Shown here: one piece after another, positions 40,083-59,784 of the stretch | How positions within the stretch are numbered: the stretch's first letter is position 1 | How the letters are laid out: the number at the start of each line of letters is the position of its first letter | Assembly (NCBI RefSeq): GCF_003966895.1 | Contig: NZ_AP018449.1 | Span: forward strand, 1,422,001-1,486,000 | DNA from: Methylomusa anaerophila | Lineage (GTDB): Bacteria > Bacillota > Negativicutes > Sporomusales > Sporomusaceae | DNA: 64,000 bases | Reading direction: 5' to 3' | The notes under the pieces: generated by a model | Told to the model about the DNA's origin: nothing | The model's database searches: none | The model's input: only the letters and a program-made list of their open reading frames with translations | Made by a program: the position numbers and the translations under genes

Positions 40083-40157
40083 GCGGAAATAGCTCAGCGG
40101 TAGAGCATCGCCTTGCCAAGGCGAGGGTCGCGAGTTCAAATCTCGTTTTCCACTCCA
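40083..40157 (+). tRNA. tRNA-Gly (anticodon GCC)
   Basis: 75 nt. Anticodon arm TCGCC-TTGCCAA-GGCGA, T arm GCGAG-TTCAAAT-CTCGT, encoded CCA. The acceptor GCGGAAA/TTTCCAC has a C-A mismatch at position 2-71. Confidence 0.93.
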
Positions 40158-40195
40158 TACAGGGGGATATCTAATATTCATTTAAAAACAACTCC

Positions 40196-40550
40196 AGCTT
40201 TCCTTAAAAACGGGAATTTGCGGTACCGTTTGATTTCGGTACTGAGGAAAGTCCAGACTGCCACAGCCTGAGATGGCTGTAATGTTTGTGCCCATCGCAA
40301 GATGGGGCGGAACAAAAGTTCTGACGACGGCCAAATCGACTCACGCAGTCGAAAGTAACCATAAAGTGCACAGAGAATGAGTAGGCTGGCGACAGCCTAG
40401 TGAAAAGTGGTAAACTCCGCAAGGCAGAAACCCAAATTATGGTAGGGGAACTTCCTATAGGGAATAATGAACCGAAGGGAAGAACGTATTTACACGTTAG
40501 ACAAATGAATTCCTAAAACAGAAACTGGCTTACGGTTTTTAAGGAAGGCT
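40196..40550 (+). ncRNA. rnpB: RNase P RNA
   Basis: The ends pair as P1 (AGCTTTCCTTAAAAAC with GTTTTTAAGGAAGGCT). Inside are the conserved blocks GAGGAAAGTCCAGACT, AAAGTGCACAGAGAA, CTCCGCAAGGCAGAAACCC and the 3' ACAGAAACTGGCTTAC. Length about 355 nt is normal. It forms the catalytic RNA that matures tRNA 5' ends; here it is flanked by tRNA genes and likely shares the promoter at 40027. Confidence 0.93.
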
Positions 40551-40571
40551 GTGTATATATAATTTTTGCGA

Positions 40572-40648
40572 GACTCCGTAGCTCAGCTGGATAGAGCGTT
40601 TGACTACGAATCAAAAGGTCGCAGGTTCGAATCCTGCCGGGGTCGCCA
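40572..40648 (+). tRNA. tRNA-Arg (anticodon ACG), probable island attachment site
   Basis: 77 nt. Acceptor GACTCCG/CGGGGTC, anticodon arm TTTGA-CTACGAA-TCAAA, T-loop TTCGAAT, encoded CCA. Its last 49 nt recur at 59810-59858 with 43 identical bases in a row. Confidence 0.96.
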
Positions 40649-45543: not shown

Positions 45544-45969
45544 TTGACGGAGTTTAGTCCTACGAAAGGCGGTGGTTACCATTTATATGGCGCCATGCGC
45601 AACAATATCCTGGATGAGTTAATCGCCGATTACATAGGCATCGTGGCGGCGGGACACTATGAGGCCGGCTGGTTTTTACGTTTTACCGGACTGGAGAATT
45701 ATCCGCTCTACCGGGACGGCGGCCGGCTGGAAATTTACCGGGGCAATCCGTCGCTTTCCGACGAAGCTTTCCGTGTTTTGCAGACTCTTGTGAAAAGAGC
45801 GGCGGAAAATCTGGCGCGATTTGACCGGGAAAACAGAATGCATTTGCACAAGCCGGCCGGGCAAACGGCGCTGCTGGCGGCGCTGACCCGCCTGACACTG
45901 GAGGAACTGGCCGGTGAAGAGGCTGGGATTTATCTGGCGCGGTCTTTAAGGCTTAAAAAAAATTTCTAA
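45544..45969 (+). pseudogene. C-terminal fragment of an unidentified protein
   Basis: 141 aa. Starts abruptly at TTG without a ribosome site, with SPTKGGGYHLYGAMRNNILDELIADYIGI, which reads like the middle of a larger enzyme. The rest (GWFLRFTGLENYPLYRDGGRLEIYRG, AFRVLQTLVKRAAENL) is well-formed and GC-rich, unlike the preceding gene. I take it as a 5'-truncated gene; the parent family is not identified. Confidence 0.45.
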
Positions 45970-46093: not shown

Positions 46094-47440
46094 GTGAAAC
46101 CTTCCATATACAATTTTATCTGGCCGGCAGAACAACAGGACAAAGTAATTGTTTTTAACAGCATGACTACCGCCTTGATCGAACTGGACAAGGACTGCGC
46201 GGCAGTCTTGAATAAACCCGGCTTTGCCCTTGAAGAATTGTCTTTTGGTGACAGGCTGCTTGTCGCAGGCTTGAAAGAAGGCGGCTTCGTGCTGGATGAT
46301 GAAATCGACGAATTGCAAGTTCTGAAGTTCAATTATAACCGGCAAAAATATGACCCTGGCAGGATGGGCCTTACCATTGCCCCGACTATGCTGTGCAATT
46401 TTGCCTGCACCTATTGCTTCGAGCAACCCGGTGAGGGCGACAGGCGTGACGGCGGCCATAGTATAATGCCTGAACCGGTCCGGCAGGAGTTAGTTGACTT
46501 TGTCGCCAGGGCTGCCAAGAATTTAAAAAGCCTACAGGTCATATGGTACGGAGGCGAACCACTTTTAGCCCAGGATGTTATTGTTGAGCTGTCGGAAAAA
46601 TTTATTAGCCTGGCTGCCGAAAATAACATTGCTTACTCGGCTTATATGGTTACGAACGGGTATCTGGCTGACGAAAATCGCTGGACCGTTCAAAAGTTAA
46701 AAGAAAACAGAATCAGCACTATCCAGGTCACTCTGGATGGTCCGCCGGAGGTCCACAACCGGAGGCGGATGCTTAAGTCCGGCCGGGGTTCCACCTTCGA
46801 GCGAATCCTGAACAACATTAAATTGCTTTTAAGCCAGGGGCTGGCAGTTCACCTGCGCATCAACGTGGACCGGTCCAATATGGAAAACGCGGAGGAACTG
46901 CTCGATATCCTGGAAGCAGAAAACTTAAAGGATATCCAGAATATATATCTCGGACAAGTTCATGCGGACACGGCAGGCTGCAAGTCTGTGGAAAGCTCAT
47001 GCGCCACCACGGAAGAATTTACCCGTTTTAGCTGCGCCTTTCACAGGACTCTGGCCCACAGGGGCTTTAAGGCGGGCCGCTATCCCCGTTCCGCGGTCAG
47101 CTGTTCGGCCAATTATCTGAACGCCTTTGTAATCGACCCGGACGGTGATATGTATAAGTGCTGGCATGAAGTCGGCAATAAGCCGCTTGCTGTCGGCAAT
47201 ATCGCCGGATTTGACAAACCCCGGGACAGACAGCAGCGCATGCGGGAAATCCGCTGGCTGACCTGGGAGCCCTTTGCCTATGCCGGCTGCCTTTCCTGCA
47301 AGCTGGTGCCTGTCTGTATGGGCGGATGCAGCTATCGGGCGATGCATGCCGGTGACAACCAACCGGATTGTTTGGAGTGGAAGTACGGCCTGGAGGATTA
47401 TATCAAATTGCGCTGCCGCCCGACAGAAATGAACCAATAA
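46094..47440 (+). CDS. Radical SAM/SPASM peptide maturase for an NHLP-leader RiPP
   Basis: 448 aa. The radical SAM motif CNFACTYC lies near residues 101-108, followed by a (beta/alpha) barrel with VIWYGGEPLLA and VTLDGPPEVHNRRR. The C-terminal SPASM domain supplies many cysteines (CSANYLNAFVIDPDGDMYKCW, CLSCKLVPVCMGGC, PDC) for two auxiliary 4Fe-4S clusters. Proteins like this modify Nif11/NHLP-type precursors, for example by thioether or carbon-carbon cross-links. It lies directly upstream of the precursor gene and is presumably the first gene of the operon. GTG 46094 is chosen 8 bp after GAGGAGA; ATG 46085 overlaps that site. Confidence 0.88.
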   Translation: MKPSIYNFIWPAEQQDKVIVFNSMTTALIELDKDCAAVLNKPGFALEELSFGDRLLVAGLKEGGFVLDDEIDELQVLKFNYNRQKYDPGRMGLTIAPTMLCNFACTYCFEQPGEGDRRDGGHSIMPEPVRQELVDFVARAAKNLKSLQVIWYGGEPLLAQDVIVELSEKFISLAAENNIAYSAYMVTNGYLADENRWTVQKLKENRISTIQVTLDGPPEVHNRRRMLKSGRGSTFERILNNIKLLLSQGLAVHLRINVDRSNMENAEELLDILEAENLKDIQNIYLGQVHADTAGCKSVESSCATTEEFTRFSCAFHRTLAHRGFKAGRYPRSAVSCSANYLNAFVIDPDGDMYKCWHEVGNKPLAVGNIAGFDKPRDRQQRMREIRWLTWEPFAYAGCLSCKLVPVCMGGCSYRAMHAGDNQPDCLEWKYGLEDYIKLRCRPTEMNQ

Positions 47441-47507
47441 TCCGACTAAAAAATTTATATAAAAAATGTTGGCTCCAATCGTTTATATAGAAAGGAGGTG
47501 AGTACAA

Positions 47508-47786
47508 ATGAGTCAGGAAAATCAAAATGCTTTATTTGAGAAAATTGTTAAGAAAGCCTGGGAAAACGATAATTTCAAAAAGTCATTGATAGCTGATCCT
47601 AAAGCAGCTATAGAGGCCGAATTCGGCGTCAAGGTTCCTGCCGGTATTGAACTCAAAGTTGTTGAACAAACGGCTAAACTGAGGTATATCGTTATGCCCG
47701 AGAAGGCAGGAACGCTCTCGGAAGAGCAGCTTGATAACGTAGCAGGCGGTGGATGCACTGGATACTTCTGCCCGATCTACTGGTAA
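47508..47786 (+). CDS. RiPP precursor with nitrile-hydratase-like (NHLP) leader peptide
   Basis: 92 aa. Residues 1-80 are an NHLP leader: EKIVKKAWENDNFKKSLIAD, FGVKVPAGIELKVVEQT, RYIVMPEK. It ends LSEEQLDNVAGGG, a double-glycine protease site. The remaining core is CTGYFCPIYW, 10 residues (11 if cut one Gly earlier), with two Cys, two Tyr, one Phe and one Trp. A very strong site AAAGGAGGTGAG precedes ATG. The gene sits between its maturase and exporters, with a hairpin downstream (47870-47911) that could give the precursor transcript excess. The product is likely a small cross-linked peptide; its activity is unknown. Confidence 0.9.
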   Translation: MSQENQNALFEKIVKKAWENDNFKKSLIADPKAAIEAEFGVKVPAGIELKVVEQTAKLRYIVMPEKAGTLSEEQLDNVAGGGCTGYFCPIYW

Positions 47787-47869
47787 CAACGTATTATTAT
47801 GCTCCAGGTTAAATTAAATCAGGCCTATCTGAGACACTAAAAGTGTTCAGACGTGGTGGTTCTTTCCTT

Positions 47870-47911
47870 TATCAAGGGGTTATCGATTTTTAGGGCGGTA
47901 ACCTCTTGATA
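47870..47911 (+). terminator. Hairpin downstream of the precursor gene, possible partial terminator
   Basis: 16-bp stem TATCAAGGGGTTATCG / CGGTAACCTCTTGATA (two G-U pairs) around a 10-nt loop. It has no T tract, so it may act as a processing or stabilising stem that sets precursor against transporter expression. Confidence 0.5.
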
Positions 47912-48064
47912 TTCTTGCATGCGCAATGACAGCTTTGGCAAGGCTGCCGGCGGGGAAAGCGGTTATATTGCGCTTTGATCCGGTTAGGAGGACGCCGGAT
48001 TGGAGCATTTTAAGGGCTATACGCTTGATTGCTCCTATAGGCTGTGTGGGCAGGGGGGAGTGCG

Positions 48065-49237
48065 ATGCAGAAACAATACGTTTATGCGTTTTTTGGCAGC
48101 GCCATTGTCCTGATTGGGTTACTGGCGGGGTACGGCATCTACGTCAATGCCACCAGCAGCGCCCATGTGGCGAAAATGGCGGCTGCCCAGTATGTCCGGG
48201 TGCGCAGCGCGCCGGCTCTAATCCGGGAAATTGCGCCGGCGGTCTATTTTTCGGTCGTAAATATCTATTCTCCGAACATGCTGGACGTGCATTTTGAGCT
48301 GGACGGCATGTTGACTAAAGTCTTTGTCAAGCCGGGCGACCGGGTGCGGGCCGGCCAATTGCTGGGCGAAATCGTCAATACGGAACTGCCGTCGCAACTG
48401 TTGCAGGCGGAAGGGAAAATTCATTCCAGCGAAGCCACTGTTGTAAAATGGGAGAATACCTTACGGCGGTATCAGGCCCTGGCGACTCAGAATGCAATTT
48501 CCCAGCAGCAACTGGATGAGGCGTCTACCAGCCTGAAAGCGGCCGGAGGAGAACTTACCTCAGCCCGGGCGTACCATGGAGAACTGATTACCCGGCTGGG
48601 GAAGCAGCAGATCGTGGCGCCCTGTGACGGCGATATCCTGCAGGTGTATCAAGGGCCGGGGGCGGTAGTGCGCAGCGGGGGCTCACTGGTAATGATCGGT
48701 GAACTGGCATCTTTGTATTTTCGCAACGATGTTGCCGGTGATATTCTGGAACAATTGCAGCCGCTGACAGGGCGCTTCAAGCTGGCGGTGCATCGAGGCG
48801 ATGTTATGGAGAAGGCTTACTCTTCCTCGCTCAAGGACGGAGGAACTACCGGCGGAACAGATGCTTTTGACCTGCAGATTACAGGAGTGTCACCCCCGCC
48901 GGAGACGCCGGCCCGATACCGTACCGTGGAGTACCGAATTAATAATTCCGCCGGTTTGCTGGAACCGGGCACTTATTATCAGGTCAGGATTTACAGCACA
49001 GAAAAACGGCAGGTATTGTGCGTGCCCCAAGATGCCGTCATGGGTGGCGCGGCGCCCTTTGTGTTCGTAGTCGGGCCGGACAGCCGTCTGGAACAGCGGC
49101 CGGTCAGGACCGGGATACAGGATGACGAATATGTGGAAGTGCAATCTGGTTTATCAGAAAATGAAGTGGTTGTGGTGGCCGGGAAGTATGCCGAGTTCGT
49201 GCCGGGCATGAAAGTACAGGCCATTCAGGCGCCGTAA
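48065..49237 (+). CDS. RND/MFP-type periplasmic adaptor subunit
   Basis: 390 aa. One N-terminal membrane helix (YVYAFFGSAIVLIGLLAGYGIYV) is followed by a biotinyl-lipoyl half motif (LDGMLTKVFVKPGDRVRAGQLLGEI), a coiled-coil hairpin (about 110-180), the second lipoyl half (QQIVAPCDGDIL) and a C-terminal barrel (VPQDAVMGGAAPFVFVVGPD). This is an AcrA/HlyD-type adaptor. No RND pump or MacB is adjacent, so it presumably serves the NHLM exporters and would span the periplasm of a diderm cell. Start ATG after GGGGGGAGT. Confidence 0.82.
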   Translation: MQKQYVYAFFGSAIVLIGLLAGYGIYVNATSSAHVAKMAAAQYVRVRSAPALIREIAPAVYFSVVNIYSPNMLDVHFELDGMLTKVFVKPGDRVRAGQLLGEIVNTELPSQLLQAEGKIHSSEATVVKWENTLRRYQALATQNAISQQQLDEASTSLKAAGGELTSARAYHGELITRLGKQQIVAPCDGDILQVYQGPGAVVRSGGSLVMIGELASLYFRNDVAGDILEQLQPLTGRFKLAVHRGDVMEKAYSSSLKDGGTTGGTDAFDLQITGVSPPPETPARYRTVEYRINNSAGLLEPGTYYQVRIYSTEKRQVLCVPQDAVMGGAAPFVFVVGPDSRLEQRPVRTGIQDDEYVEVQSGLSENEVVVVAGKYAEFVPGMKVQAIQAP

Positions 49238-49256
49238 GCGAGAAGGGGCTGGAGCG

Positions 49257-50228
49257 ATGCAAAAAGAGCAAAGTCAGGGATTATTCCGGCAGGAAGCGCT
49301 GGAGAAGCTGCGCTCGCCGGATCAACTGGATAAATTGTTTGCGCCGGCTACACCCGTGGCCTGGATTGCCCTGGCCACCATGCTGCTGCTGGTATTTTCC
49401 GCGCTGGTGTGGTCGGTTTTCGGCGTGATGGCCACCAAAGTGAACGGGACCGGTATGATCATTGATGCCGACGGTTTGGTCAATATCAGTTCAGCGACCA
49501 GTGGACGGCTGGCTGAAATACGGGTGAAGGTCGGTGACCGGATACAGCGCGGGCAGGTTGTGGCCACAGTGGAGCAGCCGGACCTGGAAGCGCAGATTGC
49601 CCGGATCAACCGGGAACTGAATACCGCCATGTCCCGTGAAGATATGGCGAACATGGTGGCCAACCTGAATGAACTGCAGGACAAACTGGAGCGAAACAGC
49701 CGGGTGATCAGCCCGGTGGAAGGGATTGTCGCCGACTGGGTGGCAAGCGGGGTAGGTGACATTTTGGCGCCCGGTACGCCGCTCTTGAACGTGCGCATCG
49801 ACGAAGAGGCCCGGGGTGAAATCAAGGTCTTGCTGTATGTGCCGGTGCTGGAGGGCAAAAAAATCCGGCCGGGAATGACGGTACAGATCGCGCCCGGTTC
49901 GGTGGACGCCACGGAATACGGCACTCTGGTTGGACAGGTGCACAGTGTATCGAATTATCCCCTCCAGGCCGACAGCATGACCAACTGGACAGGCAACAAG
50001 GACCTGACCACCTGGATTCTACGGCAAACCGGCGGCGCGGCTATGGAGGTCCAGGTTGACTTGATCAAGGACAATGACACGGCGACCGGCTATCTGTGGT
50101 CGTCCATTCATGGCGCGCCGGAGAAAATTACAGCGGGGACGGCTTGTACGGGCAGTATTGTGGTGAAGCGGCAGGCACCGATTACCAAGGCTTTTCTAAA
50201 ATTGAACCAGTGGCTGCGGAGTGATTGA
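49257..50228 (+). CDS. NHLM bacteriocin system secretion protein (HlyD-like)
   Basis: 323 aa. N-terminal cytoplasmic segment with RQEALEKLRSPDQLDKLFAPATPVAW, one membrane helix (about 30-55), then HlyD-like barrel parts (GRLAEIRVKVGDRIQRGQVVATVEQPDLE). This matches the HlyD-type adaptor of NHLM microcin export systems. It is short compared with classical HlyD. Its stop overlaps the next gene. Confidence 0.87.
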   Translation: MQKEQSQGLFRQEALEKLRSPDQLDKLFAPATPVAWIALATMLLLVFSALVWSVFGVMATKVNGTGMIIDADGLVNISSATSGRLAEIRVKVGDRIQRGQVVATVEQPDLEAQIARINRELNTAMSREDMANMVANLNELQDKLERNSRVISPVEGIVADWVASGVGDILAPGTPLLNVRIDEEARGEIKVLLYVPVLEGKKIRPGMTVQIAPGSVDATEYGTLVGQVHSVSNYPLQADSMTNWTGNKDLTTWILRQTGGAAMEVQVDLIKDNDTATGYLWSSIHGAPEKITAGTACTGSIVVKRQAPITKAFLKLNQWLRSD

Positions 50229-50230
50229 CC

Positions 50231-52390
50231 ATGATGAAACCACGACGTATTAAAACTCCGACGGTTTTACAAATGGAAGCGGTGGAATGCGGCGCTGCCT
50301 CCCTAGGCATAATTCTGGCCTACTATGGGCTGTTCCTTCCCCTGGAGCGGCTGCGGCTGGAATGCGGCGTGTCCCGCGACGGCAGCAAGGCCAGCAATAT
50401 GATGAGAGCCGCCCGGCGCCTGGGACTGGAGGGCGCGGGCTTCCGTGACAGCGCAGCAGGACTGCGGGACCAGGAGCTGCCCTTGATCATTCACTGGGAT
50501 TTCAACCATTTTCTCGTATTGGAAGGTTTCAAAGACAACCTTGTGTATCTGAATGATCCGTGCGCCGGTCACCGGACGGTGACCTGGGACGAATTTACCG
50601 CCTCCTTCACCGGTGTCGCGCTCCGGCTGAAGCCCGGCCCGGATTTTCAAAAAGGCGGCTCGACTCCGGGGATTATCCCGGTTCTAGCCAGACGGTTGCG
50701 TGGTCAGAACAAAGTGCTGGTTTTTGCCTTGCTGACCGGTGCCGGCCTGATCATTCCCGGACTGGCCATTCCGGTGTTCAGTCAGGTGTTTTTGGATGAT
50801 ATTCTGTCCTTGAAACATGCGGACTGGCTGTTTAATTTGCTGCTGGCCATGGGGTTCGCGGCGGTGCTGCAGGGGGCGCTGACCTGGCTGCGTTCCTGGT
50901 GCCTCACCCGTTGGCAGGGCGCGCTTACCGTCGGGGAGTCCAGCCGCTTTTTCTGGCATCTGCTCCGGCTGCCGATGGAGTTCTTTCAACAGCGCTACGG
51001 TGGAGAAGTAGCTTCCCGGGTACAGTTCAATGAAGAGGTGGCAGCGGTGTTAACCGGTCAGGCCGCCACGGCGGTTCTGGATGTGTTGGTAGCGCTGTTT
51101 TATCTAAATCTCTTGTTTCAGTACGATGTGTCCTTAACCCTTATCGGCATTGTGTTCAGCTTGCTGAATGTGAGCATTCTCTATTTGATGTTCCGCTGGA
51201 TGACCGAGCAGCAGATGAAAATCCAGCAGGATAGGGGCAAAGCCTATGGTACGGCTATCGCCGGTATTCAGATCATCGAAACCTTGAAGGCCAGTGGCAA
51301 CGAGGGCGATTTTTTCAATAAGTGGGCGGGCTATCAGAGCAAATTACTGGAAACGCAGCAAAAAATCGAATTATCCGCACAGACGCTCATGCTTGCGCCG
51401 GCTTTTCTGGCCGGTTTGAATACCGCCGTCATTATGGCGGTGGGTGGCTTTCAAATCATGGACGGACTAATGACCGCTGGTATTTTTGTGGCGTTTCAGC
51501 ATTTGATGGGTAAATTTCAGGAACCGCTGACGAATCTGCTCAATCTAAGCCAGGCGCTGCAGACGACTCAGATGCAGATGCAGCGCCTTGATGATGTATT
51601 CCGTTATCAGACTGACCAGGCCAACTATCCGGCGGAGCCGCCGCCGGCCATCGACCGTACCAAACTGTCCGGCCGCGTGGAACTGCGGCAGGTAACCTTT
51701 GGCTATAGCCGGCTGGAAGCGCCGCTGATTGAAGATTTCACTCTAACCATCGAGCCGGGGCGCTGGGTGGCACTGGTCGGCGGATCGGGCAGCGGCAAGT
51801 CCACGGTGGCCAAATTGGTAGGCGGTCTGTATCAGCCCTGGACAGGGGAAGTCATGTTTGACGGCTTGCCGCGCCGCCGCATTCCCCGGGAGGTCATTGT
51901 TAACTCGGTAGCGGCGGTAGATCAGGAGATCATCTTGTTCGCCGGTACGGTGGCGGAGAATATTTCCCTGTTCGATACCACCCTGGCACGCTTCGAAATT
52001 ACGCGCGCGGCCAAAGACGCCGCCATTCACGGCGATATTACCGCACTGCAGGACGGCTACGACGCCAAGGTGGCGGAGGGAGGACGGAATTTCAGCGGCG
52101 GACAGCGGCAGCGACTGGAAATTGCCAGAGCCCTGGCCGGAAGCCCGTCCGTGCTTGTGCTTGACGAAGCGACCAGTGCTTTGGACCCCTTGACGGAACA
52201 AGCGGTTATTAACAATATCCGCCGCCGCGGCTGCGCCTGTCTGGTGGTTGCTCACCGTTTGAGCACCATCAGGGATTGTGATGAAATTATTGTTATGCAG
52301 CATGGCAAAGTCGTACAGCGTGGCAGGCATGAGGAAATGATGGCAACCGAGGGGCCGTACCGGCAACTGGTTGCCCATGATGCCGGGTGA
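50231..52390 (+). CDS. NHLM bacteriocin export ABC transporter with C39 peptidase domain
   Basis: About 719 aa. Residues 1-140 form a C39 peptidase with catalytic Cys in VECGAASLG (near 20), His in HWDFNHFLVLEGF and Asp in YLNDPCAG. The permease follows (about 160-450). The ATPase has Walker A GGSGSGKST near 515, signature NFSGGQRQRLEIARAL and Walker B VLVLDEATSAL. It should cut the leader after the Gly-Gly site and carry the product across the inner membrane. ATG 50231 overlaps no ribosome site; TTG 50225 is less likely. Confidence 0.92.
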   Translation: MMKPRRIKTPTVLQMEAVECGAASLGIILAYYGLFLPLERLRLECGVSRDGSKASNMMRAARRLGLEGAGFRDSAAGLRDQELPLIIHWDFNHFLVLEGFKDNLVYLNDPCAGHRTVTWDEFTASFTGVALRLKPGPDFQKGGSTPGIIPVLARRLRGQNKVLVFALLTGAGLIIPGLAIPVFSQVFLDDILSLKHADWLFNLLLAMGFAAVLQGALTWLRSWCLTRWQGALTVGESSRFFWHLLRLPMEFFQQRYGGEVASRVQFNEEVAAVLTGQAATAVLDVLVALFYLNLLFQYDVSLTLIGIVFSLLNVSILYLMFRWMTEQQMKIQQDRGKAYGTAIAGIQIIETLKASGNEGDFFNKWAGYQSKLLETQQKIELSAQTLMLAPAFLAGLNTAVIMAVGGFQIMDGLMTAGIFVAFQHLMGKFQEPLTNLLNLSQALQTTQMQMQRLDDVFRYQTDQANYPAEPPPAIDRTKLSGRVELRQVTFGYSRLEAPLIEDFTLTIEPGRWVALVGGSGSGKSTVAKLVGGLYQPWTGEVMFDGLPRRRIPREVIVNSVAAVDQEIILFAGTVAENISLFDTTLARFEITRAAKDAAIHGDITALQDGYDAKVAEGGRNFSGGQRQRLEIARALAGSPSVLVLDEATSALDPLTEQAVINNIRRRGCACLVVAHRLSTIRDCDEIIVMQHGKVVQRGRHEEMMATEGPYRQLVAHDAG

Positions 52391-52411
52391 TGTACCGGGG
52401 AGGAGGTATAT

Positions 52412-55351
52412 ATGGGAGCGGACATGACAGGAAACCGGCAGCTTATACTAAGTAACAGCCAGGTTGCATGGCTGGATGATCAGGACAAGGTATGGCGGGT
52501 GGACGAAGGAACGGTGGACATCTATGCCGTCACCGCTGCGGAAAGCCACCATTACCGGCAGCTTTTTCTAGCCCAGGCCGGGGAGGGGCGGCTGCTGTTC
52601 GGCTTGTCCCCGGAAACAGCCGGCGGTATCCGGCTGATGGCCATCGCTGTTAAGGCGGCGAAGCTTTGTGCGATGCCGCGGGCGGATTTGCTGCAAACAG
52701 CCCGGGAAGCCGGCGAATGTAAGCCGGAGGAGATATTGCCCGCCATTGAAGCATGGTTGGAAGCGCTGCTGGCCGGACCGGAACCACCGGCCGGTCCGAC
52801 AGCTTTTTCCCTGCTGTCGCCGGGAGAAACCCTGTCTTTGCCGGCGGGGCAGGCGGTCAGAACAGGCCGGGACATAACCTGGGCGCGTGCCGTGTCGGGA
52901 GAAATAAGCCTCGGCGCCAGGCCGGAGGATGGCCTGGCGCCGGATATGGCGATTCCGCTGGTTAAGGAGACCTGGCTGGTGGCGAACAGCGAGGCCGTAA
53001 TACAGGGGCTGACCACGGCAGATATTTTCGTTCCGGCGCAAATGGAGAATCCACAGCGGTTCTGGCAGCCCTTGGACCGCTGTCAGCAATTGTTTGCGAC
53101 CTTGATGGCCGGCTGGTTTACTGGTGAAGACCGGCGCGACGGCGAACGGCTGGCGGCAAGAGGGCGGCTGAAGGAGCAGTTGCTGTATGGCGCCGCCAAT
53201 CATCTGCTGCGTACCGATATGCCGGATTTGCCTCCGGCGGCGGTGCCAGACGGCCCGTATTCACCGTTATTAATGGTGGTGAGAGCGGCGGCCGGCCATC
53301 TGGGCATTGCGGAGCGGCAGGTGCGCCTGCCGGCCGGAGCGGATCCGCTGAGGCAGGATCCGGCCCTGCTCCGCAGTGTGGCCCGGCTGGCCGGAATACA
53401 GGTGCGTCAGGTATGCCTGGAACCGGGCTGGCAGCAGCGGGACAATGGCCCGCTCATCGCTTTCCGGGGACCGGACCGGCATCTGGTGACGTTATTGCCG
53501 GTGTCGCCGCGCAAATACCGCCTGTTTGATCCCGGCCAGGCGGAGATGGTAATGATCGAAGACGGAACAGGCCTCGGGATTGAGCCGCTTGCGTATATCC
53601 TATATGCCGGGTTGCCCGGCAGAGCGCGAAGTTTGCCCGACTTGCTGAATTTCATGCTCGGGAAGTGCTGGTCCGGCGATGGCTGGAGTATTGTTCTGAT
53701 CAGTATGCTGGCCGGTCTTATTCCGGTGCTGACCCCGTTTATTACGCAGACGATTTTTGAACATATCATTCCGATTAACGACCGCCAGGGCCTGGTGATG
53801 GTGGTGCAGGTCATGCTGGTAGCCGCTTTTGCCACGGCCGGTGTTTCTTTTGCCCGGAGTGTCGCTTTTCTGCGGTTGAAAAGCCGGTCGCAGTTGGTTG
53901 CCGAGGCTGCTTTGTGGCTGCGGCTGCTGGCTTTGCCTGCCGGCTTTTTCCGGCGTTATGAGGCCGGCGATTTAGCTCAGCGCATGCATAGTGTCACGCA
54001 AATATTCACGCTGCTCTCCAATTCAACCGTGTCGGCCCTGTTCAATGCGCTTTTTTCCTTTTGGAGCCTGCTGGCCATGCTGTATTACAGTTGGAAGCTG
54101 ACCTTTATGGCCGGGGCGGTGTGGATCGGTTATCTTGGTGTGGCTATTTTTCTCCAATGGCGCATGGTGGCGGCCAAGCGCCGGATGATGGAAGCAATGG
54201 GCGAAACGGCCGGTCAAGTGCTCCAGATCTTTAACGGCTTAAGCAAGTTCCGTATTCAGGGGGCGGAAGCCCAGGCGTTTTATTTATGGTCCCGGAAATT
54301 CGGCGAACAATGGAAATGGAACAGGGAGTTTCGCTGGAAGGCCAATTGGCTGGAACTCGTTAATACGCTGCAGCCGTTGCTGCTGACCATGCTGATTTTC
54401 TGGCTGACAATGGACTGGCTGGAACAAGGGGCCGGGACGCAGACACCGTTCATCACCTTGCCGCAATTTATGGCCTTCAATGCGGCACTGACCGGCTTTA
54501 GCGCCACCATAACGGGACTGATGGTATTGAGCGTGAATTTGCTTGAAATCGTGCCCCAGTTGGAACGGCTGCGTCCCATCCTGGAAGCTGAACCCGAAGT
54601 AACCGAGGATAAGGCCGAGGTCGGCGCGTTAAGCGGCAGGGTCGAAATCAGCAACGTGTCTTTTCGTTACGGTCCTGATCTGCCGCCGATATTACGTAAT
54701 GTGTCCATGAATATTCGCCCGGGGCAATTTGCCGCCATTGTGGGGTCTTCCGGCAGCGGCAAATCTACCTTGCTGCGCCTCCTGCTGGGGTTTGAGAAAC
54801 CGGAGACAGGGTCCATTTACTATGACGGACAGGAATTGGCGGAGGTGAATATTACCTCCGTACGGACACAAATGGGGGTAGTGCTGCAAAACGGGCAGTT
54901 GATGGCCGGTGATATCCTCACCAATATTATCGGCTCGCTGCCGCTGACCATTGATGACGCATGGGAAGCGGCGGAAATGGTGGGATTGGCTGAGGATATT
55001 CGCGCTATGCCCATGGGTATGCATACCCTGATCAGCGAGGGGGCTTCCAATATTTCCGGCGGACAGCGGCAACGGATTCTAATCGCCCGTTCCGTTGTCC
55101 ACCGTCCGCGAATTATTGTGTTCGATGAGGCTACCAGCGCGCTCGACAACAAGACCCAGCGAATGGTGACCGAAAGCCTGGACCGGATGCACGCCACCCG
55201 CATCGTGGTGGCGCACCGGCTGAGCACGGTAATGAATGCCGATGTTATCTATGTATTGGATAAGGGCGAGATCGTGGAGAGCGGGACTTATGCCGAATTG
55301 ATGGCGGAAAAAGGCTTATTTGCCACGCTGGCTTACCGGCAGATGGCGTAG
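52412..55351 (+). CDS. NHLM bacteriocin system ABC transporter, ATPase/permease without active peptidase
   Basis: 979 aa. A long N-terminal region (about 1-400) contains a divergent domain and a degenerate peptidase-like part (LAGIQVRQVCLEPGW, FRGPDRHLVTLLP). It is followed by six membrane helices and an ATPase with Walker A GSSGSGKST near 780, signature NISGGQRQRILIARS and Walker B IIVFDEATSAL. This is the second NHLM ABC protein that always accompanies the first; its separate task is not established. Start ATG after GGGGAGGAGGT. Confidence 0.9.
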   Translation: MGADMTGNRQLILSNSQVAWLDDQDKVWRVDEGTVDIYAVTAAESHHYRQLFLAQAGEGRLLFGLSPETAGGIRLMAIAVKAAKLCAMPRADLLQTAREAGECKPEEILPAIEAWLEALLAGPEPPAGPTAFSLLSPGETLSLPAGQAVRTGRDITWARAVSGEISLGARPEDGLAPDMAIPLVKETWLVANSEAVIQGLTTADIFVPAQMENPQRFWQPLDRCQQLFATLMAGWFTGEDRRDGERLAARGRLKEQLLYGAANHLLRTDMPDLPPAAVPDGPYSPLLMVVRAAAGHLGIAERQVRLPAGADPLRQDPALLRSVARLAGIQVRQVCLEPGWQQRDNGPLIAFRGPDRHLVTLLPVSPRKYRLFDPGQAEMVMIEDGTGLGIEPLAYILYAGLPGRARSLPDLLNFMLGKCWSGDGWSIVLISMLAGLIPVLTPFITQTIFEHIIPINDRQGLVMVVQVMLVAAFATAGVSFARSVAFLRLKSRSQLVAEAALWLRLLALPAGFFRRYEAGDLAQRMHSVTQIFTLLSNSTVSALFNALFSFWSLLAMLYYSWKLTFMAGAVWIGYLGVAIFLQWRMVAAKRRMMEAMGETAGQVLQIFNGLSKFRIQGAEAQAFYLWSRKFGEQWKWNREFRWKANWLELVNTLQPLLLTMLIFWLTMDWLEQGAGTQTPFITLPQFMAFNAALTGFSATITGLMVLSVNLLEIVPQLERLRPILEAEPEVTEDKAEVGALSGRVEISNVSFRYGPDLPPILRNVSMNIRPGQFAAIVGSSGSGKSTLLRLLLGFEKPETGSIYYDGQELAEVNITSVRTQMGVVLQNGQLMAGDILTNIIGSLPLTIDDAWEAAEMVGLAEDIRAMPMGMHTLISEGASNISGGQRQRILIARSVVHRPRIIVFDEATSALDNKTQRMVTESLDRMHATRIVVAHRLSTVMNADVIYVLDKGEIVESGTYAELMAEKGLFATLAYRQMA

Positions 55352-55445: not shown

Positions 55446-58400
55446 CTAAAGTATGGTATGTCCGTGGTAGCTCAGGGCGGTACAGCGCCGCCGCAGTTCC
55501 GTGGCCTTGGCCCTTTCCCCTGCGGCCCGGTAACTTGCCAGCAGGGTTTGGGCTGCCGCCAGAAAGCTGTCCTCGTAGGCCAGCCTGGTACTTTCAGCCC
55601 ACAGTGTCTCCATATCATCCAGATACCGGCCGGTATAACAGTCAACTACTTTTTGGGCAGTTGCGGGTTCGGGCCGTTGCCGGAATTCTTCCGTTGCCTG
55701 CCGGAACAGGTCGAGATCGCAGATGATTTCTTCCCTATTCAGGCGATATAAGCCGTTTTCATGCAAAACGGGATTTGCTGCTCCCAGGCTTTCGAAAGCT
55801 CGCCGGATTTCACCCCGGCGGGTGTGGAACAGGTTGACGGCATCAGCCTCGCTATTTTCCCATATGTCTCGGCAGACTTGCTCCCGGGTAACTCCCTTGC
55901 GGTGTTCCATTAAGTAGGCCAGAAGTTCCCGCGCCTTTTGCGTGCGGATTTTAACCCGGTTTTTCCTGTTGTGGGCGGGGGCGATATAGAAAGCGCCCAG
56001 AGTATGCATATAAACCCGTTCTATTGTATATCCGCCATAGGACAGCATTTCCTGAGTAAACTCGGGATTGATGCCGCAATCTGCGGCCAGCTTGAGGACC
56101 GGGGCGAAGAGGGGCTTGAAGCGGATGTAATAGCGGTGATCGTATTGCTGGGAAAGCGCCAAAAAGCGCTGGGTGTATTCTTTGGCTGTGACTATATTCC
56201 CTTCCCGCAGGTAAATCGCTGCCAGCCTTCCATAAGCGACAGTAGGGTAAGCATAGCTGCCGATGTCTTCACCAATCCGGATGGCTTCGTGGAGAAAGTG
56301 CTTGCATTGCTCGCTGTCCAGATGCAGTGTGTCCAAGGCATTGGCCATACGCCCATAGGCCATAATTTGGAAAAAGGGGGTTGTCCCTTTTAAGAGAGTA
56401 AGAATTTCGCTGATAATGTGACCGGCCTTTTCCGGCTGTGTCAGCAGTCCGGCGCAAAGCGCCCATATTTTTATGAATAGGTAATGATCGCGGGTGCTGC
56501 GGTTCAGAACGGCATATTCCTTCGCCAGGCTGAGATACCGGTCAATAATGGAGAAATCGAAGGGCAGGCCGCAGTAACATTTCAAAAGCTCTTCCGAATG
56601 GAGGATCTCCACACGAGAGAGGTAGTGGATACTATAATCTTCGTAAAGTTCCAGTTGTTTCAGACGCGTCAGTTCCGTGTCCAGCAAGGGCAGCACCTTT
56701 TCTTCCCGTCCGGTAACCTGATAAGCCTTGGCCGCATAGGCGCCTACGCTGTGGCGCAGCAGCCAGTCCCGTTCTTCCTGGGGGATGGAGAGGGATTTTT
56801 CATAAGCTTTCAGACAATTTTTGAAATCGCCACAGTAAAAATAAATGGCGGTTAAATAGCGTTCAAACCATGCCTTCACTCCGACCGCTCCCGTGCTCAG
56901 ACATTGATCCATCATAGTCATGGTCAGTTCCATTGCCTCGGAGAGCCGGGAGGTCATGGTAAGATTGTAGATTTTTTCGATGACCACAGCATACCAATCC
57001 TGCATGGGGGCGTCCGGCGGCAACGGCAGCAGGGAGTCAAGGCAGCGGGTGCTTTCCTCGAACGAGACCTTGTTGCGCAGTACTCTGGCTATATGGGTCA
57101 TAGCGTACCGGTAGAGGGTTTGATCATCGTCGCTTAAATGGGGGATTGCAGCGCGTAAATATTTTTCCGCCTGATGAAAATCTCCCAGATTAGATAAAAT
57201 CATGCCTTTGGCCAGCATGACCCGGGGAGATAAATCGGCGGCGCGTTCTTCCAGAAAGTCAAGGTATTTTTTCAGGCTGCGGATGCGGTTCCGGGCAAAC
57301 GGCAGGGCCAAGATGGCGCCGATGCAATTCTGAATCGCCCTGCCGTCCTCCAAAAGCAAGGCATACTCGGCGGCCTGAGCGTAATCTCCTTCTTCGTAAG
57401 AAAGAGCCAGGGCTCGCTTTAGGGTTTCCTTGTACAGTCCCTCGCTAATTTGCCGCAGAAAAGCCCGGAATAAGACGTGGTGGCGATAAGCCGAGGCAGA
57501 ATGGCGTACTGTGAAGATGTTGTGCTGGACAAGGTTCTCCAATATTTCCCGGCTATTGCCAATGCCAAGGAGGGTATCGCAGAAGGCGGGCTCCAGCACA
57601 GGCAGACCGGAGGCGGCCTTCAAAAAAAACTGGACCTCTGCGGGCAACTGCAGGATGATCTCATTTAAGAGATAGCGGTAGAGGTCTTGTTCGGCGTAGA
57701 GTCTCGATACAGGAAGGGTCCGGCTGCCTTTTGCGGCCAGACGGTAGGATTGGAGGGCTAACGTCCAGCCTTCGGTGGCCTCGTAAATATCTTCATCAAA
57801 AAAACCTAAAAGATGCTCAGCCTCTTCCCGGCTGAAACATAAATCCTGTTTGTTAAATTCAGCCATTCCGCCAGTCAGCTTCAACGGGAGAAGCCCATCC
57901 CACGGGGCATGGCGGCTGGCTATGATCAGGGAGAGGGTGGAAGGGCAAGCCACTGCCCACGCAGTAAGCAAGGCGGTTATGGTATGGTTATGAATCACAT
58001 GAACATCATCCATCAGGATCGACAATCTTCGCTGCCCGATTGCTTCCAACAGGGCGGGCAACAGGAGGGCTGTGAAGCGCTCGCTTAGGGCAAAAGGGAT
58101 ATAGTCTGCGGCGTAAAACTCAAAGCTTCCCAGCTTCTTCCGGATGGACGACTCCAGATGGCCCAGAAAATACGGTATATCACTGTCCCTGTCATCCAGG
58201 GAAAGCCAGACCACATCATTCCGGTTCTGGGCGTATTGCAGCATCAGGATGGTTTTTCCATATCCCGCCCCGGCATGAATATAGGTGAGTTTGCTGCCGG
58301 GAGGGCAAATATTCTCCACCAGGCGGGAACGGAAAATGATTCCGTCGCCTGGGGCTAAAAGCGGAAGGTCCTTCTTTTGCTTCAGGTAACCGCCTGATTT

Positions 58401-58559
58401 AACTCTGGCATCGTCCGGTTTGGTTGCTGTTTTAGGAATCAGCCACGTCCAGCCATGGCGCTCCGCACCTTTGATCCTGCCTTTCTGGCAGAGGGTGTGG
58501 ACCCGGCGCTGAGAGATTCCCCACTTTGCTGCGGCTTCTTTGGGAGTGATATATTGCAC
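55446..58559 (-). CDS. STAND-type transcriptional regulator (MalT-like) with BTAD domain
   Basis: 1037 aa. The N-terminal 45 residues are an excisionase/MerR-like DNA-binding fold (TPKEAAAKWGISQRRVHTLCQKGRIKGAERHG). A NTPase domain follows with P-loop AGAGYGKT (residues 96-103) and Walker B LSILMDDVHVI. The middle is helical TPR-like repeats (about 420-850). The C-terminus has an OmpR-like winged helix (KARELLAYLMEHRKGVTREQVCRDIWENSE) and a bacterial transcriptional activation domain. It probably senses a signal by its TPR region and activates the RiPP operon. GTG start after GGAGGAGGATAAAG. Convergent with the operon. Confidence 0.85.
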   Translation of the reverse strand: MQYITPKEAAAKWGISQRRVHTLCQKGRIKGAERHGWTWLIPKTATKPDDARVKSGGYLKQKKDLPLLAPGDGIIFRSRLVENICPPGSKLTYIHAGAGYGKTILMLQYAQNRNDVVWLSLDDRDSDIPYFLGHLESSIRKKLGSFEFYAADYIPFALSERFTALLLPALLEAIGQRRLSILMDDVHVIHNHTITALLTAWAVACPSTLSLIIASRHAPWDGLLPLKLTGGMAEFNKQDLCFSREEAEHLLGFFDEDIYEATEGWTLALQSYRLAAKGSRTLPVSRLYAEQDLYRYLLNEIILQLPAEVQFFLKAASGLPVLEPAFCDTLLGIGNSREILENLVQHNIFTVRHSASAYRHHVLFRAFLRQISEGLYKETLKRALALSYEEGDYAQAAEYALLLEDGRAIQNCIGAILALPFARNRIRSLKKYLDFLEERAADLSPRVMLAKGMILSNLGDFHQAEKYLRAAIPHLSDDDQTLYRYAMTHIARVLRNKVSFEESTRCLDSLLPLPPDAPMQDWYAVVIEKIYNLTMTSRLSEAMELTMTMMDQCLSTGAVGVKAWFERYLTAIYFYCGDFKNCLKAYEKSLSIPQEERDWLLRHSVGAYAAKAYQVTGREEKVLPLLDTELTRLKQLELYEDYSIHYLSRVEILHSEELLKCYCGLPFDFSIIDRYLSLAKEYAVLNRSTRDHYLFIKIWALCAGLLTQPEKAGHIISEILTLLKGTTPFFQIMAYGRMANALDTLHLDSEQCKHFLHEAIRIGEDIGSYAYPTVAYGRLAAIYLREGNIVTAKEYTQRFLALSQQYDHRYYIRFKPLFAPVLKLAADCGINPEFTQEMLSYGGYTIERVYMHTLGAFYIAPAHNRKNRVKIRTQKARELLAYLMEHRKGVTREQVCRDIWENSEADAVNLFHTRRGEIRRAFESLGAANPVLHENGLYRLNREEIICDLDLFRQATEEFRQRPEPATAQKVVDCYTGRYLDDMETLWAESTRLAYEDSFLAAAQTLLASYRAAGERAKATELRRRCTALSYHGHTIL

Positions 58560-58852
58560 CTTTATCCTCCTCCACGACCTGTGCGACCGTCTTCAATGCT
58601 AATTATTTTCTTTCATTATAAGCGAACTTTCGAACAATATCGAGCTGAACTTACAGAATGTGAGACAAATTTCCCCTTTTATGGCTTGCAAATGCATGAA
58701 TGAGTCGAACCATAGGATAAATTGTCGAAAATGGTGGCTGGCGGCAGTTTTGGTGGTAGGCGGCTTTCTATAATCAATATAGTGCAGTAAGGTTCTTTCT
58801 GTGGCAAAGACAGAAGGACAAGCCGGTGTATTGGTCGGGAGGCGGGTTATGG

Positions 58853-59413
58853 ATGACGACGGTCAGGCTGACGCAAATGGAGGAAGAGGCATGGAGTAAG
58901 TCGGATGATGAGCGGTTTTTTGGCGAAATCTACAGAGAGTACTTTCCACGGATATACAATTATGTCCTTTATCGCGTGAACAACCACCATGACGCAGATG
59001 ATTTGAGCAATGAGATCTTCGTCAAAATTTTTACCAGCCTGAACCGCTATCAGGCGGAAAAGGCTTCCCTGCCGGTATGGATCTTCAGTATAGCCCGCAA
59101 CTCGGTAATTGATCATTATCGACGAGGCCTGCAGCCAGCCACATCTTTAGATGTAATTTCCGACCTCTCCGATTCCCGGCCAGGGCCTGACGACACGGTG
59201 GCCTCCCGTGAGCTGTGGCAGCATTTGCGGGAAGCTTTGGCCTCTTTATCCCAACGGGAACGGGAAATTATTGCGCTTAAGTTCTGGAGCGGTTTTTCCA
59301 ACAGGGAGATTGCCGGAGTTATCGGCATCAGCGAAAGCAATACGGGCGTTACCCTGTTCCGGGCCATGCGGCGGCTTCGCCTGATTTTGGAAAGCCAGGG
59401 GGTTGAATATTGA
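58853..59413 (+). CDS. ECF-type sigma factor
   Basis: 186 aa. Region 2 (FFGEIYREYFPRIYNYVLYRVNNHHDADDLSNEIFVKIF, PVWIFSIARNSVIDHYRRG) and region 4 (LREALASLSQREREIIALKFWSGFSNREIAGVIGISESNTGVTLFRAMRRL) are typical of group 4 sigma factors. ATG 58853 follows GGGAGGCGGG; the upstream GTG is not supported. It overlaps the next gene by one base (TGATG), a sign of sigma/regulator pairing. It reads divergently from the STAND regulator and may drive part of the island. Confidence 0.9.
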   Translation: MTTVRLTQMEEEAWSKSDDERFFGEIYREYFPRIYNYVLYRVNNHHDADDLSNEIFVKIFTSLNRYQAEKASLPVWIFSIARNSVIDHYRRGLQPATSLDVISDLSDSRPGPDDTVASRELWQHLREALASLSQREREIIALKFWSGFSNREIAGVIGISESNTGVTLFRAMRRLRLILESQGVEY

Positions 59414-59784
59414 TGACGGAACGGACTAAGGCCGAACTGTACCTGACCTATCTGGACCGGATCCTGGCCGGGGAAAAAGATATCGAGCCGGTAGAGGACG
59501 GCGAGATAGCCGAGCTCATCAGGCTGGCCCAAACCATGATTGCTGCAGATTTCAGCAGTAAAAGCAAAATCAGGGAGATATTGCGAAAACAACTTCTGGG
59601 CAGGCTGTCGCCGGAAGATAAAGCCATCCTGGCTGTTATGGCTAACGACGGCAGGAAAGAAGGAGAACTGCTGGAAGAGGAGCTGAACTTTGTAACCGCC
59701 GCAGGGCAGGGAGTGGGAAACATTTGCCCCCGCTGTGGGGCAAATATGGGCTGGGTGCAAAGGAAATGCCCGTTCTGCCGATAA
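59413..59784 (+). CDS. Small zinc-ribbon protein, possible anti-sigma partner
   Basis: 123 aa, soluble, helical, ending in a zinc ribbon CPRCGANMGWVQRKCPFC. No membrane helix. Translational coupling to the sigma gene suggests it controls that sigma factor, although it is not a classical zinc anti-sigma (no HxxxCxxC motif). Function is inferred from position only. Confidence 0.6.
   Translation: MTERTKAELYLTYLDRILAGEKDIEPVEDGEIAELIRLAQTMIAADFSSKSKIREILRKQLLGRLSPEDKAILAVMANDGRKEGELLEEELNFVTAAGQGVGNICPRCGANMGWVQRKCPFCR

What the first reader, a model, noticed from the sequence alone, without database searches (positions are those of the whole stretch)
46094..55351. Complete NHLP/NHLM RiPP cluster with an unusually short aromatic, two-cysteine core
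Seen: one radical SAM/SPASM maturase, one 92-aa precursor with NHLP leader ending VAGGG, and a core of only CTGYFCPIYW, then two adaptors and two ABC proteins in one direction. Known: NHLP leaders are cut by C39-ABC exporters, and SPASM enzymes form thioether or carbon links. Inference: the product is a very small macrocycle, with Cys1 and Cys6 linked to Tyr, Phe or Trp positions. I know of no described peptide with this core.
Basis: partly seen in the sequence, partly recalled or inferred. Interest (0 to 1): 0.9.

Follow-up and report, generated by a model that had tools for sequence, protein, structure and literature searches.

The report
NHLP-leader radical-SAM peptide gene cluster
This is a real gene cluster for a very small exported peptide that a radical enzyme probably ties into rings through its two cysteines; it belongs to an unnamed enzyme group, found in anaerobic bacteria and methane-making archaea, whose chemistry has not been tested.

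Summary
In detail: a radical SAM/SPASM maturase (46094-47440), a 92-aa NHLP precursor (47508-47786), two adaptors and both NHLM ABC proteins. All ten radical-SAM and SPASM cysteines are invariant among relatives; the model best matches the thioether-forming maturase CteB. The maturase passes no curated family cut-off (Clo7bot: 438 bits of 600). Eighteen loci with 47-60% identical maturases occur in Desulfotomaculia-type bacteria and methanogens; in 17 an NHLP precursor lies just upstream. They form one clade, the window deepest. The core is probably GCTGYFCPIYW (11 residues); relatives have cores as short. New here: precursors of the wider maturase family begin M-x-[FYW][ILV][VIK]-x-P, resembling the NHLP segment YLVLP (window YIVMP); three methanogen precursors lost other leader parts but kept it, suggesting a docking strand. 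The residue three after Cys is enriched for N/D/F/Y/W/H; both window cysteines have Tyr there. I propose Cys-S to Tyr(+3) thioethers, then C39 cleavage and export. Thioether type is likely; the position is tentative, as held-out sets were not significant. NHLP-radical SAM pairing was noted in 2014.

The parts
46094..47440 (+). Radical SAM/SPASM peptide maturase, 448 aa, with an N-terminal domain of RRE-like topology (residues 1-85). CX3CX2C = C101/C105/C108; SPASM Cys C337, C356, C399, C402, C408, C412, C426.
   Evidence: TIGR04334 438 bits, under the 600 cut-off; these ten Cys invariant in 19 clade members and in 41 relatives; AlphaFold model pLDDT 88.5, best match CteB 5why Z 29.2 over 386 residues
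47508..47786 (+). NHLP precursor, 92 aa (stop codon included in the coordinates)
   Evidence: TIGR03793 91.1 bits, cut-off 50.9; only NHLP in the genome; SD AAGGAGGTGA before the ATG
47685..47699 (+). Candidate docking strand YIVMP in the leader (residues 60-64), counterpart of YLVLP in relatives and of M-x-[FYW][ILV][VIK]-x-P at the start of non-NHLP precursors
   Evidence: docking itself is inferred
47751..47783 (+). Core peptide GCTGYFCPIYW (residues 82-92): two C-x-x-Y-[F/W] units
   Evidence: NHLP profile ends at residue 81; masses
47870..47911 (+). Hairpin with a 16-pair stem (two G-U) between the precursor and the export genes (possible attenuator)
   Evidence: region z-score -2.55; function inferred
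48065..49237 (+). RND-type membrane-fusion protein
   Evidence: TIGR01730 175 bits
49257..50228 (+). NHLM HlyD-type adaptor, 323 aa (profile is 421 long)
   Evidence: TIGR03794 272 bits, cut-off 156
50228..52390 (+). NHLM ABC1: C39 peptidase/permease/ATPase, expected leader peptidase and exporter
   Evidence: TIGR03796 1034 bits, cut-off 853; Peptidase_C39 1.3e-29
52412..55351 (+). NHLM ABC2 permease/ATPase
   Evidence: TIGR03797 809 bits, cut-off 709
45544..45969 (+). Remnant of DUF7005 (C-terminal third only). Complete copies in related clusters carry HE[AC][AT]H and DE[LI][LI]AD, as in zinc peptidases; the window copy lacks the HExxH half
   Evidence: PF22541 match to profile 247-360 of 361; tblastn finds no N-terminal part
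58826..59784 (+). ECF-type sigma factor (58826-59413) and overlapping 124-aa protein (59410-59784) with a leader-like ELLEEELNFVTAAG helix; likely regulator of the cluster
   Evidence: Sigma70_r2/r4; sigma homologues near other NHLP loci L010, L041, L042, L046, L053, L111

Best explanation
A RiPP pathway of the NHLP/NHLM type whose maturase is of the Clo7bot/CefB/PapB-related radical SAM/SPASM group. Step 1 (inferred): the maturase's N-terminal RRE-like domain binds the leader strand KVVEQTAKLRYIVMP. Step 2 (thioether likely, exact bond tentative): the SPASM enzyme abstracts a hydrogen from an acceptor side chain and closes S-C thioethers from C83 and C88 of the precursor, most likely to the beta-carbon of the residue three positions later, Y86 and Y91, giving two small rings in GCTGYFCPIYW. 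Step 3 (follows from the family): C39-ABC1 cuts after VAGG and ABC1/ABC2 with the adaptors export the product, expected [M+H]+ 1305.507 with two crosslinks (1309.538 unmodified). The ECF sigma factor and MalT-like regulator next to it probably control expression.
For: Family scores for every gene. In 18 of the 19 clade loci first examined (17 found by the scan, plus the window) an NHLP precursor lies immediately beside the maturase; the maturases form one clade (100/99), so the pairing is old and kept. All rSAM and SPASM cysteines invariant in 41 relatives. The model matches CteB, a thioether-forming SCIFF maturase, including its N-terminal domain (model residues 5-442, Z 29.2). Every member scanned hits the Clo7bot, TIGR04463 and CefB models, whose substrates are Cys-rich. 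Twelve of the 13 cores of the initial set have at least two Cys. Cys+3 enrichment for N/D/F/Y/W/H: NHLP 30/59 against 19.1 expected, the only enriched offset of 12; Clo7bot 27/38 against 15; other relatives 42/91 against 23. Docking motif: 21 same-strand ORFs against 0 of 482 on the other strand; retained in methanogen leaders that lost other parts.
Against: No chemistry is shown. The Cys+3 class was chosen after looking; two held-out sets lean the same way but are not significant (10/23 against 7.6, p 0.18; 13/39 against 10.5, p 0.21). Peptides from one locus are paralogues, so counts are not independent; with one core per locus p is 0.0085. One adjacent core (SCRVIF) has a single Cys, and L046 shows no NHLP precursor nearby. 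YLVLP is ancestral to nitrile hydratase and occurs in NHLPs served by other enzymes, so its likeness to the Clo7bot start could be coincidence. Most relatives, notably the methanogens, have no NHLM exporter beside the pair.
Confidence: 0.6

Rival explanations
1. The maturase joins aromatic side chains by C-C or C-O bonds (cyclophane type), with the cysteines left as a disulfide or free.
For: The core has Y, F, Y, W close together; some relatives have paired aromatics, CTGWWC, CGTWYC, CSPYYC.
Against: At least one Cys is in every adjacent core found while aromatics vary; methanogen cores have a single aromatic (GCDGVGGCGFCEC). The nearest families (Clo7bot, CefB, PapB) have Cys-rich substrates, and cyclophane models (AmcB, YhhB, GrrM) score only 54-75 bits.
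Confidence: 0.12
2. Thioether to an alpha-carbon (sactipeptide) or to a residue other than +3, for example the aromatic just before the second Cys.
For: [FYW]C is frequent; C-x(0-3)-[FYW]-C in 9 of 13 loci against 1.8 in shuffles. CefA repeats often have only Ala/Gly around Cys.
Against: The C-x(0-3)-[FYW]-C motif is post hoc and absent from the later cores of L124-L128; position -1 is not significantly enriched while +3 is.
Confidence: 0.25
3. The product is not an exported antibiotic-like peptide but an intracellular redox or metal-binding peptide; the exporter in the window is a later association.
For: In methanogens, Formimonas and Desulfosporosinus the precursor-maturase pair stands without NHLM genes; methanogen leaders lost the LTDEQL helix.
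Against: In the window, L036, L038, L039 and L053 NHLM ABC genes lie close by and the window precursor keeps a full VAGGG site.
Confidence: 0.15

Closest known systems
Clo7bot peptides and their maturase CtpM (TIGR04334)
   Same: Nearest named maturase: 40% identity, 438 bits, same full-length architecture; substrates Cys-rich, start with M-x-[FYW][ILV][VIK]-x-P, Cys+3 rich in N/Y/D/F
   Different: Under the equivalog cut-off; Clo7bot precursors are about 50 aa with no NHLP domain and no GG site; the window maturase lies in a separate clade
NHLP/NHLM RiPP systems (TIGR03793/03794/03796/03797; Haft, Basu and Mitchell 2010, PMC2887384)
   Same: Leader, GG site, HlyD, C39-ABC1 and ABC2 all over their cut-offs
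   Different: That paper tied NHLPs to cyclodehydratases and LanM and has no occurrence of the term radical SAM; here a SPASM maturase is the only modifying enzyme
NHLP clusters with radical SAM genes in anaerobes (Letzel et al. 2014, PMC4289311)
   Same: Same general pairing noted, with peptidase-bearing transporters
   Different: The passages read do not classify the maturases; cores 14-59 aa; no Methanosarcina in the text; this clade not delimited
Ranthipeptides and sactipeptides (CteB/SCIFF, PapB/freyrasin, NxxC)
   Same: RRE-like + radical SAM + SPASM fold, CteB is the best structural match; Cys-dependent crosslinking expected
   Different: PapB model only 119 bits of 340 and SCIFF model 86 of 425; acceptor Tyr would be unusual against Asp/Asn/Thr; different leader
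Proteusins (PoyA, PlpA) with radical SAM epimerases or spliceases
   Same: NHLP leader plus a radical SAM enzyme
   Different: [quoted passage not shown] here SPASM and an N-terminal RRE-like domain

Membership tests
NHLP precursor (TIGR03793) | Profile score over curated cut-off, GG cleavage site | tested here: met
   91.1 bits against 50.9; VAGGG
NHLM export system | HlyD, C39-ABC1 and ABC2 over cut-offs | tested here: met
   272/156, 1034/853, 809/709 bits
Radical SAM/SPASM peptide maturase | CX3CX2C and seven SPASM cysteines conserved | tested here: met
   Invariant in 19 and 41 relatives
Radical SAM/SPASM peptide maturase | N-terminal RRE (PqqD-like) leader-binding domain | tested here: inconclusive
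   Model residues 1-85 are three strands then helices and align with CteB and TigE from residue 1-5; Pfam PqqD not hit at E 0.01; binding not tested
Clo7bot maturase (TIGR04334) | Equivalog cut-off 600 bits | tested here: not met
   438.6 bits
Clo7bot system | Short Cys-rich Clo7bot precursor beside the maturase | tested here: not met
   Precursor is an NHLP
PapB-family ranthipeptide maturase (NF047865) | Equivalog cut-off 340 bits | tested here: not met
   119.2 bits
Ranthipeptide (as chemistry) | S-C-beta or S-C-gamma thioether in the product | not testable with these tools
   Needs MS/NMR; Cys+3 enrichment is only suggestive

The most novel reading that the evidence does not exclude
An unnamed, cross-domain class of NHLP-leader ranthipeptides in which a Clo7bot-type maturase, docking on the YLVLP strand, joins each Cys to the beta-carbon of whatever sp2-bearing residue sits at +3; the window peptide would be a bicyclic 11-mer with two S-C-beta(Tyr) bonds, an acceptor I do not know from described ranthipeptides, and methanogens would make a strictly conserved version.
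Probability: 0.25. Interest if true: 0.7.

Novelty: new variant of a known kind. Interest (0 to 1): 0.5.

Why it matters
It defines a coherent maturase clade, shared by sulfate reducers, syntrophs and methanogens, that current family models do not name, and gives its natural substrates. The small core makes the chemistry easy to test by mass. If the docking strand is right, it explains how an enzyme group with short substrates took over a large ready-made export leader, which would be useful for joining leaders and enzymes at will.

Tried and rejected
The motif C-x(0-3)-[FYW]-C as the family signature: strong in the first set but absent from later cores, so dropped as general. Cys next to an aromatic: weak trend only. 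Viral contigs: no relative of the maturase. Phage records: no match to the precursor. Plasmid records: only Clo7bot, TIGR04463 and more distant maturases, and NHLP leaders that, in the one annotated region inspected, sit with LanM. Relatives in the window's own order: none among 27 other genomes. First structure model with 19 sequences was poor (pLDDT 63) and not used. One further genome search met a class of only 15 genomes. Rfam found nothing inside the cluster. Literature searches for Clo7bot, or for NHLP with SPASM, returned nothing.
Full report
What is there. The maturase start at GTG 46094 is supported by an AGGAG 9 nt upstream and by the start of its relatives. The first adaptor is an RND-type membrane-fusion protein; only the second is the NHLM HlyD. 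The genome has a single NHLP gene.

Relatives. A search of 150 related genomes found no close maturase, but an NHLP search in the phylum turned up a partner locus (L015/L027) with a 55% identical maturase and a core ending VVCMYCPFHP. An alignment of the two found 18 loci: Pelotomaculum, Desulfotruncus, Desulfocucumis, Desulfosporosinus, Formimonas, several MAGs, and methanogenic archaea. In 17 an NHLP precursor lies just upstream of the maturase; in L046 none was found in the stretch held. In the window the precursor is downstream. Whole-genome searches added members, among them a 3.03-Mb genome with three copies, one interrupted by a stop. Only 1 of 28 genomes of the window's order, its own, carries it, which fits lateral gain.

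Tree. Twenty NHLP-linked maturases form one group with 100/99 support; the window is the deepest branch; Clo7bot CtpM and a few others lie nearest outside; the archaeal enzymes nest inside the bacterial ones, so they were probably acquired by transfer.

Enzyme. C101/C105/C108 and C337, C356, C399, C402, C408, C412, C426 are invariant in 41 relatives. The model (pLDDT 88.5) aligns best with CteB, a thioether-forming SCIFF maturase (Z 29.2, 386 residues), with anSME, ChlB and TigE following. The N-terminal 85 residues are three strands then helices, as in RRE domains, and are covered by the CteB and TigE matches. Family models: Clo7bot 438 of 600, TIGR04463 310 of 525, CefB 245 of 600, PapB 119 of 340: related to these groups, member of none.

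Docking strand. In maturase loci outside the NHLP clade, Cys-containing small ORFs begin M-x-[FYW][ILV][VIK]-x-P: 21 same-strand ORFs in 10 of 17 loci, none among 482 on the opposite strand. NHLP leaders hold YLVLP (window YIVMP) ahead of the GG helix. Three methanogen precursors share a deletion of about two dozen residues in the NHLP domain and, with all archaeal ones, lack the LTDEQL helix, yet keep KVxEESAD[IV]VHL[VI]LPQKL and an invariant GCDGVGGCGFCEC core. I infer that this strand is what the maturase needs. The caveat is that YLVLP is inherited from nitrile hydratase and is general to NHLPs.

Where the bond may be. With Cys fixed and other residues shuffled, only offset +3 of twelve is enriched for N/D/F/Y/W/H in the NHLP cores (30/59 against 19.1), as also in Clo7bot (27/38 against 15) and other relatives (42/91 against 23, where -2 is enriched too). 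These residues share a beta-carbon next to an sp2 carbon, where a radical is stabilised (general chemistry); Asp and Asn are known acceptors in freyrasin and NxxcA (PMC8326336). The window core is two C-x-x-Y-[F/W] units. The class was chosen after inspection and two later sets were not significant (p 0.18; p 0.21), so I hold the exact position at about one in three.

Export and control. C39-ABC1 is expected to cut after GG. Four other loci carry NHLM ABC genes near the pair (L036, L038, L039, L053), most others do not. Full-length DUF7005 proteins in L038, L041 and L053 carry HE[AC][AT]H and DE[LI][LI]AD, suggesting a zinc peptidase; the window retains only the C-terminal third, which fits loss of a redundant protease, an inference. 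An ECF-type sigma factor lies downstream and near several related loci.

Known or new. NHLP/NHLM is known (PMC2887384); radical SAM genes beside NHLPs in anaerobes were noted in 2014 (PMC4289311). New here, as far as the papers held show, are the delimited maturase clade, its archaeal members, the docking-strand correspondence and the Cys+3 proposal. Verdict: a sound, modestly novel RiPP system, not a unique oddity.

Noticed in passing
window 59410-59784; L053:5667-6053; L010:2501-2833; L111:520-855: Beside the ECF sigma factor lies a small protein of no Pfam family with an NHLP-type cleavage helix ([DE]EL..V[TAS]AG or VAGG); in the window its tail has two CxxC. Possibly an anti-sigma whose tail is a substrate of the exporter peptidase.
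   Followed up: partly
L053:6081-7241, L038:10480-11595, L041:12330-13658; remnant at window 45544-45969: DUF7005 (PF22541, unknown function) has HE[AC][AT]H and DE[LI][LI]AD, suggesting a zinc metallopeptidase linked to NHLP clusters.
   Followed up: partly
L126, L127, L128 (G638): A 3,025,375-bp genome with three clade maturases (one with an internal stop) and many NHLPs; by size I think it is Pelotomaculum thermopropionicum SI, whose NHLPs were earlier ascribed to a thiazole/oxazole pathway.
   Followed up: partly
L048:8642-9004, L133:2862-3224, L134:2334-2678: Methanogen precursors end in tandem QIKNQAQIKN-like repeats after an invariant core; the L134 maturase is broken by a TGA.
   Followed up: no
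L018-L022: Paenibacillus-type NHLPs whose profile match stops before the GG region, e.g. L019 ending NPSKVNYDVNCGPWRD.
   Followed up: no
window 40083-40645: RNase P class B RNA flanked by two tRNA genes.
   Followed up: no
window 55446-58559 (-): MalT-like STAND/TPR regulator with an HTH_17 start, on the opposite strand next to the cluster.
   Followed up: no
window 47870-47911: Hairpin with a 16-pair stem (two G-U) and no T-run between precursor and export genes.
   Followed up: partly
L161 (G294): Two maturase-type genes with precursors of the form CITPxxxxRCWxYSPC; one precursor ORF overlaps the start of the maturase frame.
   Followed up: no
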